Source: Leisingera sp. M658
Lineage (GTDB): Bacteria > Pseudomonadota > Alphaproteobacteria > Rhodobacterales > Rhodobacteraceae
NCBI RefSeq assembly: GCF_025144145.1
Contig: NZ_CP083546.1
Span: 3,692,001-3,756,000 of the forward strand
Direction: 5' to 3'
DNA length: 64,000 nucleotides
The position numbers were made by a program, and so were the translations under genes. Positions 18,341 to 23,495 of this stretch are shown here, one piece after another. The notes under the pieces are model-generated. The model was not told the DNA's origin. It ran no database searches and worked only from the letters and a program-made list of their open reading frames with translations. The stretch's first letter is position 1; each line of letters opens with the position of its first letter.

Positions 18341-19089
18341 CTATTCTCGGGTTTTGAAGCGCCAGCTCTCGTTGCCTGTTTCGACGATGTCGCAATGGTG
18401 GGTAAGGCGGTCGAGCAGTGCAGTGGTCATTTTGGCGTCGCCGAAGTCGAGGTTGGTCGTCACGATGATCGATGTGCGCTCGTAGAGGCGGTTGATGAGA
18501 TGGAACAATAGCTGACCACCGGTTTGTGCGAAGGGGAGATAGCCAAGCTCGTCGAGGATCAGGAAGCCGAGGCGGCACAGCAGATCTGCCGTGCGTCCCT
18601 GTCGGTCGGCGCGGGCTTCCGTATCGAGTTTGTTCACCAGGTCCACAACGTTGAAGAAGCGCCCCCGTCTGCCGCGGCGGATGCACGCCCGGGCGATGCT
18701 GACGGCCAGGCGGGACTTACCGGTCCCTGTGCCGCCGATCAGCACGACATTGCGTTGCTGCGCCAGAAACTCTCCGGTCGCCAGATCACGGACCAGCGCC
18801 TCGTTGACCGGCGTGCCTTCGAAGCTGAACTCATCGGCTTCTTTCGCCAGGGGCAGTTTGGCAATCGTCATCTGGTATTTGATCGAGCGCGCCTGCTTCT
18901 CACTGATCTCGGCGTTCAGCAGATCGCCCCCTCTCGGCAGCATGCTGCGCATGCGCCTGCCGGGCAATGGATGATCTGTTGCGGTTCGTGCTGACGCTTC
19001 ACTGCCGTGGCGATGGTCTCATCGTAGGCGGCCTTCATGCCGTAGAGCTTCAGCTGGCTCATCGCGTCCAGCACCTGTGATCTTTCCAT
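18341..19089 (-). pseudogene. istB: istB ATPase of IS21-A, broken by a hairpin insert
   Basis: The frame opens at ATG 19089 (MERSQVLDAMSQLKLYGMKAA) and encounters a 41-bp insert at 18969-18929, which shifts the frame. The rest continues as NAEISEKQARSIKYQM, Walker A GGTGTGKSRLA and Walker B LILDELGYLPF, to HCDIVETGNESWRFKTRE. IstB is the AAA+ helper of the IS21 transposase. Without the 41 bp the two parts join in the usual IstB order. Confidence 0.82.
18929..18969 (-). repeat. hairpin insert, family A (copy in istB)
   Basis: A 41-bp insert inside the istB frame, between sequence reading AGATCGCC and GATGATCTG on the plus strand. In family orientation it reads TTGCCCGGCAG, then stem GCGCATGC, loop GCA, stem GCATGCTGC, then CGAGAGGG. 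It lies in forward orientation relative to the host gene. Confidence 0.75.
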
Positions 19090-19420
19090 GGATGGGTCTC
19101 CTTAGGCTGTCATAGCGTTTGCAGCCGGCCACGGGCTCGCAGGTCAGTCGCAGCGCGTCGGGCGTATCGATGGTCAGCGGCGGCGGCGGCTCACGATGCC
19201 GGCCAGAATGTTGATGACGACCGAGGCCGCGGGGGCCCCTTCGTTCAGCGCTTCGGCACAGGCAGCATCCACTGCATCCAGCCCATCGGTCGGGATCATG
19301 CTCAGGATCTGGACCATCTGCCGGTCGCCATTGGGCACCTTGCCCAGTTTGCGCTGAATGCGCCTGATCGCTGATGGCAGCTCCCAGTCCTTGAAGGGAG
19401 CCCCATTCCTGAGGGCGTCC

Positions 19421-19449
19421 CGCTGCCCGGCAGCGCATGCGCAAGAGGG
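19421..19449 (+). repeat. hairpin insert, family A, short form (copy in istA)
   Basis: A 29-bp insert with the same flanks CTGCCCGGCAG and AAGAGGG but only a GCGCATGCGC stem. It lies in the opposite orientation to the host gene. Confidence 0.65.
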
Positions 19450-20019
19450 GGCTTGCGGGCCAGCACCGGGATGTAGTGCAGCGGATCGTAGATGGCCTTG
19501 TCGCGCCCGAAGGCTCGATCATGCCGCCCTACGATCTTGCCGTCCTGCCAGAACTCGACCCGCTCGGCATAGGCGCGGATCTCGACTGGCCGGCCGACGG
19601 CGCGGCCATCCACCGAATAGCGGTTCTTGTCGAACCGGACGAGACAGGTCTTCGAGACTGATGCCGGAACAGCGTGGAATCCATCAAAGGGGCCGGCATA
19701 TGGCACCAGACTCGCCCGCTCGCCCTCGAAGACCTCCCAGATCGTGCGGTCTCGAAGCTCCTGATGCGGATGAGATTTGGCCCAAGCAACGCAGCGGTCC
19801 TCGAGCCAGGCGTTTAGTTCGGCGTAGCTCTTAAACTTGGGCCTGGGCACGAAGAAGCGACGCCGGACAACGCCGACCTGGTTCTCGACCTGCCCTTTCT
19901 CCCAGCCAGACGCCGGTGTGCAGGCAGCGGGATCGACAAGATAGTGCCCGCACATCTGCTGGAAGCGCCGATTGCAGGCCCGGTCGCGGCCCACGAAAAT
20001 CGTGTCTGCCGCCGTCTTC

Positions 20020-20059
20020 GCTCGGCCTGGCCTCGGACCCATGGCGGCCAAACCTCGCT
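20020..20059 (-). repeat. hairpin insert, family B (copy in istA)
   Basis: About 40 bp replaces the expected 5 bp after the GIYD codons. It contains the family B core GCCGCCATGGGTCCGAGGCC. The outer arms GGTTTGG and CCAGGCC pair only partly. Confidence 0.6.
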
Positions 20060-20599
20060 ATCGTAGATCCCGCGCGTGCAGGCCCCGCCGAAGAAGGCGA
20101 AGGCCTGGTCATGGGCATCGAACACCATCTCTTGCGTCTCGCGCGGATAGGCCCGGACAAACAGCATGCGGCTGTGGCAAAGCCGGACATGCGCCACCTT
20201 CACAGTGGTGGTCGCGCCGTCGATCACCACAATCTCGTGGCTCCAGTCGAATTGGTAGGCCTCGCCCGGATCGAAGATCAGCGGGACATAGGCGGCCGCG
20301 GAGGCCTCTTGTTCTTCCTTGGACCACGCGGCCGCGTAACGCCGGACAGCATCATAGCCGCCGTCATATCCAAGGGCTCTCAGTTCTTCGAATATCCGGA
20401 TGCGGGTCAACCGCTCGCGCTTTGGCTTCCTCGCATTCGCCGCCAACATCTCTTCGAGCTTGTCTTTCCATGGCCCGATCTTTGGCAGAGGCTGAACGCT
20501 GCGTTCGTAGGTTGCTTCCGTCACACCAGACCGGATCACCTTCCGCACCGTATTCCGCGATACCCGCAGTTCCCGGCAGATCTGCTTGATCGGTTTGTT

Positions 20600-20640
20600 C
20601 GGCATTGGCCTCGGACCAATGGCGGCTCAATGCCTCAATC
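20600..20640 (-). repeat. hairpin insert, family B (copy near istA start)
   Basis: A clean 41-bp insert between TTTCAG and AACAAACCG of istA. The core CGCCATTGGTCCGAGG is flanked by arms GGCATTG and CCAATGCC that can pair. Confidence 0.7.
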
Positions 20641-20928
20641 CTGAAAATACGCCCGCCGGATCTTTGCTATCGTCTCCACGACCAACATCCCACTCTGTGC
20701 TCCCCGATAAGCTCGGGGGCATCATTCACATCAGTGTAAGGGGGTCTTTTTGGACGCCGATTTCCCCGCTACGGGGTCAAAATTGCATGCTTGTTCACAG
20801 ACAACAAATGCGCGCCGCGTATAGGTCCCCGGCCCGGCCTTGCGCCCGGATCGGCCGCCAGAACTATGTTTTGTCCTGACGTGTCGCGGTAAGCACTTTG
20901 CCGCTAACGAGGTTCCGGACCGCAATAC

Positions 20929-20953
20929 GGAACTTTTGGCTGCCTGACGGGTT
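20929..20953 (+). promoter_or_regulatory. near-consensus EcfG-type promoter
   Basis: GGAAC at 20929-20933, 16-nt spacer, GGTT at 20950-20953 (one mismatch to CGTT), 35 nt before the DUF1328 start. Confidence 0.6.
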
Positions 20954-20988
20954 TTACTAACAGCAACTCGCAACCGAAAGGACAAGGT

Positions 20989-22245: not shown

Positions 22246-22702
22246 CCTTGGGCGATGACCTGACGCTTGAGCACCAAGCAATTTGGGGGGCCGAGGCGTC
22301 GGACCCGATGAAATCAATTTGGCGCCAAAGGCTGTTGGGTTCAGAAAATGACGCGGTACTCGCTCGCGAAGTCCTTGCAGCCGAACGCTTCGGTGCTGCC
22401 GGCTTTATCAAATCGATGGTCCTAGATCTGGCGGCAAGCGAAGATAGCTTAGATCAAGCATACGCAATTTCGATTGCGGGCTACTCAATTCGATCTGCTG
22501 AGTTTGCTGACATCGTGGGTAAGCACATCGATCACAGAGGCGTATCAGGCCAAGCCGCCAAGCATGCGTTTTCGGAACATGAGAATGCCATATGGGCGCG
22601 GCATTGGGTTGAGAGCATGTGGAACGCGCCGACGCCAGAGCAGTTCTGGCGATGCTTGATAATTACAAAGACTTCTATGGATGCGCGTGTGAGTCCCGAA
22701 GG
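22239..22702 (+). pseudogene. truncated gene of unknown function
   Basis: About 155 codons of plausible protein (LALGDDLTLEHQAIWGAEASDP, DLAASEDSLDQAYAISIAGY, WARHWVESMWNAPTPEQFW) run into the left end of the IS5 element, which supplies the last residues before a stop. The start is abutted by the IS3 remnant. Not recognised; it looks like a middle or C-terminal fragment of a larger accessory protein. Confidence 0.45.
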
Positions 22703-23176
22703 GGCGTTGTTGCAAAACTCCCTCTTGAGGCCTGACTACCCCTTTCCCCTCTGAACTTAGGCGACGCGGACGATCTCGGCGGTGCCGAGTGCATTGAAGC
22801 GATTGATGAGGGCGATGCGGATGTGGATTTCAGCGGTTTGGCTACCAGGGTCTCTTGCGGCGATGCGTTCGCCGAATGCCTTCAAGCAGCGCATCTTTGC
22901 CTCGACCCGGCTCCGGGCGTGGTATCCTGTCCAGCGTTTCCAGAAGGCCCGGCCGTAGTGCCGGGTGGCGCGCAAGGTTTCGTTTCTGACCTGTGCCGCC
23001 GGGCAGTCTTCTTTCCACGGCCGACCATTCTTGCGGATAGGGATAATCGGGACGGCGTCACGCTTGATGATGGCGGAGTGGCAACGGCGCGTGTCATAGG
23101 CCCCGTCTGCAGTCACGCTGCCGATCTCTTCGTCCTTCGGACTCTGGTCGCGCAGTTCCGGCAGGACCGGGCTGTC

Positions 23177-23217
23177 CACTGCCCGGCAGTGGTTTGCGCA
23201 GCATAACCACGAGAGGG
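23177..23217 (+). repeat. hairpin insert, family A
   Basis: A 41-bp insert between GCTGTC and GCCGTCGCGG. Family orientation on the plus strand: CACTGCCCGGCAG, arms GTGGTT and AACCAC around TGCGCAGCAT, then GAGAGGG. It lies opposite to the host gene. Confidence 0.72.
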
Positions 23218-23241
23218 GCCGTCGCGGCTGGGGGTGAATTC

Positions 23242-23283
23242 CCTCTCGTCAGATTTGCTTTGCAAATCGCCTGCCGGACAAGG
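23242..23283 (-). repeat. hairpin insert, family A (in-frame copy)
   Basis: A 42-bp insert between GAATTC and GACAGCACGG. Family orientation is on the minus strand: CCTTGTCCGGCAG, arms GATTTGC and GCAAATC around AAA, then GACGAGAGG. It adds 14 codons without a stop between DIRAV and EFTPS. Confidence 0.75.
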
Positions 23284-23336
23284 GACAGCACGGATGTCAG
23301 ACGTGGCAGCATCCATCGCAAGATGCACCTTGCGCC

Positions 23337-23375
23337 CCTCTCATTGATTGCTCTGCAATCAACTGCCGGGCAGCG
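23337..23375 (-). repeat. hairpin insert, family A
   Basis: A 39-bp insert between CTTGCGCC and ATTGGCG. Family orientation is on the minus strand: CGCTGCCCGGCAG, perfect arms TTGATTGC and GCAATCAA around AGA, then TGAGAGG. It introduces stops in the host frame. Confidence 0.75.
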
Positions 23376-23452
23376 ATTGGCGTCGCCCCTGAACGCCGTG
23401 CTTGCGGGCCTGCCACTCACCATCGCCAAGGAACTTGATCCCGGTGCTGTCC

Positions 23453-23495
23453 GTTGCCCGGCAGGGCATTGCATAGCAATGTCCCGAGAGGGGAC
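23453..23495 (+). repeat. hairpin insert, family A
   Basis: About 40-43 bp replaces about 4 bp. Plus strand: TTGCCCGGCAG, arms GGCATTGC and GCAATGTC around ATA, then CCGAGAGGGG. It lies opposite to the host gene. Confidence 0.72.

What the first reader, a model, noticed from the sequence alone, without database searches (positions are those of the whole stretch)
18929..23495. Family A: short mobile-looking hairpin inserts inside transposase genes
Six inserts of 29-43 bp share outer blocks (T)TG(C/T)CCGGCAG and (C)GAGAGGG(G) around a variable inverted repeat centred on GC-NNN-GC. Stem arms differ between copies yet remain complementary (TTGATTGC/GCAATCAA, GATTTGC/GCAAATC, GGCATTGC/GCAATGTC, GCGCATGC/GCATGCTGC). 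They occur in both orientations, in two unrelated IS families (IS21 istB and istA, IS5 transposase), and removing them restores the expected order of protein segments. This pattern fits an unnamed miniature palindromic element, perhaps one that preferentially enters or survives in other transposons. I know of Rickettsia palindromic elements and yeast mitochondrial GC clusters or bypassing elements as loose analogues only.
Basis: partly seen in the sequence, partly recalled or inferred. Interest (0 to 1): 0.88.

Follow-up and report, generated by a model that had tools for sequence, protein, structure and literature searches.

The report
Tiny mobile hairpin riding bacterial transposons
A DNA hairpin of roughly 40 letters, not found described in the papers searched, has inserted itself many times into the transposons of marine Rhodobacteraceae bacteria, mostly at a short preferred target and without duplicating it, so it looks like a parasite that travels inside other parasites.

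Summary
Each of the six inserts is absent, at the same position, from a relative of its host IS (the fourth IS5 junction is not clean). The family reaches far beyond the window: 67 pattern matches in the own genome, 0 in the reversed-pattern control; matches in 120 of 395 genomes of its family, with 3 reversed-control matches. In a class scan of 290 genomes, palindromic copies outside the family were seen in 2.

The unit is CRYTGCCCGGCAG-[stem-loop]-GAGAGGG, mostly 34-45 nt. RTC precedes it at 40 of 73 sites (background 3.4%). No target duplication; both orientations. Arms pair strongly. In the own genome 37 of 38 sites lie in or beside IS genes (26 of the 27 that match the genome-wide pattern), 17 of the 37 placed only by reading translations.

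Two interrupted IS5 copies have exact 9-bp duplications, one of them with a further 7-nt tnp deletion. This fits movement in trans, not reading through the insert.

Best reading: a non-autonomous, REP-like palindrome surviving mainly inside IS elements. Its enzyme is unknown. It lacks the GTAG tag and a RAYT partner.

The parts
18929..18969 (-). Family A element (41 nt) inside istB of an IS21-type element
   Evidence: 41-nt gap at this place in two Paracoccus istB genes; the adjoining piece matches IstB_IS21 PF01695, E 1.1e-57
19421..19449 (+). Degenerate family A element (29 nt, AAGAGGG end) inside istA
   Evidence: 29-nt gap at this place in two Paracoccus istA genes
23177..23217 (+). Family A element (41 nt), antisense to the IS5-family transposase gene
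   Evidence: absent from L039 and L142; target GTC|GCC
23242..23283 (-). Family A element (42 nt), sense to the transposase gene
   Evidence: absent from L039 and L142; target GTC|GAA
23337..23375 (-). Family A element (39 nt), sense to the transposase gene
   Evidence: absent from L142, present in L039, L038 and the seven own-genome copies; target AAT|GG
23452..23492 (+). Family A element (41 nt), antisense, beside the VDSTG codons of the transposase
   Evidence: absent from L039 and L142; flanks differ by a few bases, junction not clean
22730..23950 (-). Host IS5-family element carrying four family A inserts and one other palindromic insert
   Evidence: seven full-length copies of 99-100% identity in the own genome; different flanks; exact 9-bp duplications at two of the seven, one more with a mismatch
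18341..20605 (-). Host IS21-type element (istB, istA)

Best explanation
Family A is a non-autonomous mobile palindrome of the REP kind, mostly 34-45 nt long. Shown by comparison: its ends (CRYTGCCCGGCAG and GAGAGGG), precise insertion with a preference for RTC before it and G after it, no target duplication, both orientations, stems whose two arms vary together, an identical copy at sites with unrelated flanks, strong concentration in IS elements in the own genome, and spread of interrupted IS copies. Inferred: a protein that recognises the folded single strand cuts 3' of RTC and joins the element there, acting in trans. An HUH-type single-strand nuclease, working like IS200/IS605 or RAYT enzymes, is the likeliest class, because short 5' target specificity, a hairpin substrate and no duplication go together there. 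Inferred: insertions elsewhere are mostly lost, while those in IS elements are copied, shared between species and so accumulate.
For: Ends: of 99 sites screened, 38 gave a candidate empty homologue and 14 of these lack exactly the element. Target: RTC in 40 of 73 sites against 3.4% background, C at -1 in 64 and G at +1 in 57, each against 31% (6 of 79 sites dropped beforehand as chance matches; sites in related IS lineages are counted apart). Stem pairing. Identical 38-mer at five sites. One IS5 target position carries at least three unrelated stems across five IS lineages. Build-up in one IS lineage: 0, 1, 4 and 5 inserts in L142, L039, the own-genome copies and L038. In G379 an intergenic repeat has five copies with the hairpin and at least nine places where its left and right parts adjoin without it. 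IS5 copies L112 and L114 with four inserts have exact 9-bp duplications, and L112 also has the 7-nt deletion shared by four copies.
Against: No mobilising gene was found. Y1_Tnp (PF01797) is absent from the own genome, which has the highest count of the 101 genomes compared. In 30 Y1 loci no pair of copies flanks the Y1 gene; three of these loci have copies within about 2 kb, those in L085 and L103 reading as inserts in IS5-type genes and those in L105 not assigned. Ends of the three IS91 types examined do not resemble it. Copy number follows IS load in general (rho 0.65 with DDE_Tnp_1, 0.68 with Y2_Tnp, 21 genomes). 33 of 73 sites lack RTC. DNA folding of six examples was mixed. No reads or living strain were examined. 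Features shared by IS5 copies could partly reflect gene conversion, and four of the seven copies have no duplication.
Confidence: 0.6

Rival explanations
1. The hairpin is an end fragment or MITE of an undiscovered IS with ordinary DDE or DEDD chemistry.
For: MITEs are widespread in prokaryotes (PMC10969869, passages and listed abstract), and the parent could be lost or rare.
Against: No target duplication at the clean sites. Of 248 left-block matches in the loci held, 236 have a right block close by; the other 12 (9 distinct) were not recognised as ends of a larger element, though only 57 nt after each were read and most loci are short. The two ends are not inverted repeats of each other.
Confidence: 0.2
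2. It is a true REP family whose RAYT partner lies in genomes not examined.
For: Size, hairpin and copy number match REPs (PMC3733652 and PMC6006769, passages). Y1_Tnp genes occur in 20 of 101 genomes.
Against: No GTAG or GTGG tag in the conserved ends. Y1 count does not follow copy number once DDE_Tnp_1 count is allowed for (partial 0.01, 21 genomes). Own-genome copies lie mostly within IS genes, not between genes.
Confidence: 0.12
3. The inserts are transparent: removed from RNA or bypassed in translation, so the transposases still work, as recalled for byp elements.
For: IS copies with four inserts have transposed. Two of the four IS5 inserts measure 42 and 39 nt, multiples of three.
Against: Two sense and two antisense inserts in one gene. 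Each of the seven copies carries a 7-nt or 1-nt deletion elsewhere in the gene. 13 of 14 clean comparisons give lengths that are not multiples of 3. Take-off and landing codons were not tested beyond a look at one site.
Confidence: 0.04
4. The element is a device that silences transposons, landing at codons for a catalytic aspartate (RTC|GAY can read Val/Ile-Asp).
For: 13 of 14 clean comparisons give frame-breaking lengths. Several sites fall at MI|DAT, V|DST and M|DETT.
Against: Many sites are elsewhere in the gene. The target preference alone may explain the aspartate sites. Copies also sit in a non-coding intergenic repeat.
Confidence: 0.04

Closest known systems
REP sequences with RAYT (TnpA-REP)
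   Same: Small palindrome, many copies, stem sequence varies, probably moved in trans
   Different: No GTAG tag, no RAYT flanked by copies in the 30 Y1 loci scanned, and in the own genome mostly in IS genes rather than between genes
CGTC-tagged REPs (PMC3733652, passages)
   Same: Palindromic repeats, present in some Alphaproteobacteria, no dedicated transposase known
   Different: No terminal CGTC in the conserved blocks; the passages seen do not describe concentration in IS elements
Rickettsia palindromic elements (PMC10969869, passages)
   Same: Palindromes inserted inside protein genes of an alphaproteobacterium
   Different: Those elements are about 150 bp and in-frame; 13 of 14 clean family A comparisons have lengths that are not multiples of 3, and hosts are IS genes
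IS200/IS605 ends
   Same: Hairpin, short 5' target, no duplication
   Different: No transposase gene and no pair of ends; Y1_Tnp absent from the own genome
Mitochondrial byp elements (recalled)
   Same: Short hairpin inserts in genes
   Different: Both orientations, and the host genes carry further deletions, so no sign of bypassing

Membership tests
GTAG REP / RAYT system | GTAG or GTGG guide at the 5' foot of the hairpin | tested here: not met
   conserved ends of 79 sites are CRYTGCCCGGCAG and GAGAGGG
GTAG REP / RAYT system | A RAYT (Y1_Tnp) gene flanked by copies | tested here: not met
   no Y1_Tnp in the own genome; no flanking pair in 30 Y1 loci. Genomes beyond the 101 were not searched
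GTAG REP / RAYT system | Mainly extragenic location | tested here: not met
   37 of 38 own-genome sites in or beside IS genes
GTAG REP / RAYT system | Palindromic stem kept while its sequence varies | tested here: met
CGTC REP | Terminal CGTC | tested here: not met
Rickettsia palindromic element | In-frame insertion that adds coding sequence | tested here: not met
   1 of 14 clean lengths is a multiple of 3; in the window 2 of 6 are (42 and 39)
MITE of a DDE transposon | Terminal inverted repeats and a target site duplication | tested here: not met
   ends not inverted repeats, no duplication at clean sites
IS200/IS605 type | Insertion 3' of a short target without duplication | tested here: met
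   RTC in 40 of 73 sites, no duplication at clean sites; the preference is not absolute
IS200/IS605 type | Single-strand cleavage by a Y1 HUH enzyme | not testable with these tools
   no candidate enzyme identified
Translational bypassing element | One orientation relative to the gene and an otherwise open frame | tested here: not met
   two sense and two antisense inserts, further deletions in all seven copies

The most novel reading that the evidence does not exclude
Family A belongs to a separate class of hyperparasitic hairpins, moved by a hairpin-reading nuclease unrelated to RAYTs, whose normal habitat is other transposons and whose target (RTC|G, often Val/Ile-Asp codons) makes transposase active-site codons frequent landing places. 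The other palindromic insert families in the same IS elements would use related machinery.
Probability: 0.2. Interest if true: 0.85.

Novelty: new variant of a known kind. Interest (0 to 1): 0.6.

Why it matters
It is a case of very small mobile DNA that, in the genome studied, lives almost only inside other mobile DNA; matching sequences occur in 120 of 395 genomes scanned in a large, mostly marine family. About a hundred natural stem variants and known empty sites make the cutting rule and the missing enzyme directly testable. It also suggests that some transposase pseudogenes in these bacteria are interrupted genes whose IS may still be moved in trans.

Tried and rejected
Chance or assembly artefact: thought unlikely because the same inserts recur in separate genomes and plasmids with empty counterparts. 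Read data were not available.

Y1_Tnp as mobiliser, IS91 ends as source and general IS load as confounder: no mobiliser named. A larger parent with the same ends: none recognised among the loci held. The larger repeat around the hairpin in G379 was first taken for a possible parent, then seen to have places without the hairpin. No Rfam match covering a hairpin in ten loci. No match to the main subtype in the phage collection. DNA folding of six examples gave mixed folds, z from -2.6 to -0.3, two below -2; the structural claim rests, not on energy. The reading-frame test (32 of 42 sites open over 150 codons when joined, 30 of 42 before) did not discriminate in this GC-rich genome. Codon-usage choice of host strand was noisy and not used for counts of orientation. 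The 82 viral stretches were not analysed.

In checking I mended two things: frame-breaking is now stated from clean comparisons, since nominal lengths (35 of 38 not multiples of 3) misjudge two of the window's inserts; and one search shows that 11 of the 38 own-genome sites do not match the genome-wide pattern and were found only in the stretches fetched around other copies.

Literature: searches showed no description of this element; two searches listed 15 of 205 and 8 of 358 papers. PMC3733652, PMC10969869 and PMC6006769 were seen as passages, the others only as listings. IS family names from reading, and byp details, are recalled.
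Full report
Observation. The six inserts are present at the stated places. Two Paracoccus IS21 copies lack 41 nt in istB and 29 nt in istA at these places. The IS5-family host has a relative without inserts in Leisingera aquimarina (L142) and one with a single insert on plasmid p3 of Leisingera sp. M527 (L039); the window copy has four and M527 p4 (L038) has five. 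Measured lengths in the window are 41, 29, 41, 42, 39 and 41.

Extent. The pattern TGYCCGGCAGN{6,30}GAGAGGG has 67 matches in the own genome (32 forward, 35 reverse; reversed-pattern control 0 and 0). It matches 39 of 101 genomes, the own one included (control matches in 3 genomes); of the 40 outside the family, one matched, and that genome also had a control match. With C in place of Y the pattern matches 120 of 395 genomes of the family (control matches in 3 genomes); some of these matches lack a palindromic core. A class scan matched 13 of 290 genomes (control matches in 4). It included five family members, four of which matched. Of the nine matching genomes outside the family, only G578 (3 copies, one imperfect) and G520 (2) have palindromic cores; the rest look like chance matches. 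The main subtype had no match in the phage collection and matches in 101 plasmid records, including Sulfitobacter, Phaeobacter, Dinoroseobacter and Ruegeria.

Anatomy. Across 79 unique sites the unit reads C-R-Y-TGCCCGGCAG, a stem-loop, then GAGAGGG. Six of the 79 were dropped as chance matches. In the other 73, RTC precedes the element in 40 (background 3.4%), C in 64 and G follows in 57 (background 31% each). Of 99 sites screened, 38 gave a candidate empty homologue and 14 of these lack exactly the element; the others were diverged, shifted or poor. No target duplication is seen at the clean sites. Of 101 distinct cores, 73 have at least 7 pairs, against 9.9% and 1.5% in two controls. The outer blocks hardly vary, so their pairing could not be tested, and DNA folding of six examples was mixed. 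Of the 14 clean comparisons, 13 have lengths that are not multiples of 3; of the window's six, two (42, 39) are multiples of 3.

Where it sits. The own genome gave 39 unique sites with a foldable core in the fetched stretches and window; one chance match was dropped, leaving 38. The degenerate istA copy is not in this set. Of the 38, 27 match the genome-wide pattern and 11 are looser copies found near them. For 16 of 38 a flanking piece is over Pfam's cut-off for a transposase, IstB or integrase family. Four are placed by alignment with less interrupted copies. Seventeen are placed only by my reading of translated flanks. One, a 34-nt subtype, lies between two sugar-nucleotide genes. So 37 of 38 are in or beside IS genes; among the 27 strict ones, 26. 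One of the 16 lies about 37 nt after the end of an IS110 gene. Hosts read as IS3, IS5, IS21, IS66, IS91, IS110 and IS1182 types among others. In other genomes the 34-nt subtype also reads as lying between genes, for example beside dnaN and recF. In G379 the hairpin sits in an intergenic repeat of about 250 nt: five copies carry it, and at at least nine places the parts left and right of it adjoin. G429 has a similar arrangement.

Mobility. One identical 38-mer occurs at five sites with unrelated flanks, four in the own genome and one in G008. One target in IS5 transposases (MI|DATYLKAHRTA) is occupied in five IS lineages by at least three unrelated stems. Seven own-genome IS5 copies at seven places share the four inserts. 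L112 and L114 have exact 9-bp duplications, L115 has one with a mismatch, and the other four have none. Four copies (L110-L113) share a 7-nt deletion and five (L112-L116) a 1-nt deletion in the gene. The interrupted IS therefore seems to have moved after its gene was broken, most simply by a transposase acting in trans. The own-genome DNA search listed 54 matches and no intact copy (40 of 72 first-look candidates were scored), so the source is unknown. Gene conversion among copies is a weaker alternative.

How it works. A short 5' target, a hairpin and no duplication are the marks of single-strand HUH systems; in IS200/IS605 elements a guide tetranucleotide 5' to the hairpin foot interacts with the target (PMC6006769, passages). 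Here CCC in TGCCCGG could pair with the terminal GGG in a similar manner; this is inference. Against it, Y1_Tnp is absent from the own genome, and Y1 counts do not follow copy number beyond IS load. IS91 (Y2_Tnp) counts do follow it (rho 0.68), but so do DDE_Tnp_1 counts (0.65), and the IS91 ends examined differ. The mobiliser remains open.

Why mostly IS. Insertion in ordinary genes would be purged, and insertion in IS elements would be copied and shared between species. That can explain the pattern without special targeting. Intergenic DNA should also tolerate insertions, and its near absence in the own genome leaves room for targeting; I did not measure the IS or intergenic fraction of the genome.

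Known or not. The searches showed no description of the element. It resembles REPs in size and fold but fails their GTAG tag, partner and location; it fails the in-frame property of Rickettsia elements and the duplication of MITEs.

Noticed in passing
window about 23548-23592: A second kind of palindromic insert (about 43-45 nt, ATGGGACC-stem-GTAAGCCCAT) in the same IS5 gene, absent from L039 and L142.
   Followed up: partly
window 20021-20055, 20600-20637, about 22174-22213: A third kind of insert sharing TGGCCTCGGACCMATGGCGGC or a relative of it; the two in istA are absent from two Paracoccus istA genes; the third place was not compared.
   Followed up: partly
L359-L363 (G379), L391-L392 (G429): An intergenic repeat of about 250 nt with several stems and no Rfam match, with many partial matches in G379; possibly a mobile repeat of its own.
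   Followed up: partly
L069, L020, L025, L026, L030: The 34-nt subtype (GGCGGC-loop-GCCGCC core) reads as lying between ordinary genes, unlike most longer copies.
   Followed up: partly
L430 (Leisingera sp. M527 plasmid): An istA copy has a deletion that begins inside the hairpin.
   Followed up: no
MI|DAT, V|DST and M|DETT positions in IS5 and IS66 hosts: Several insertions fall at the codon of a likely catalytic aspartate (catalytic role recalled), as the RTC|GAY target would favour.
   Followed up: partly
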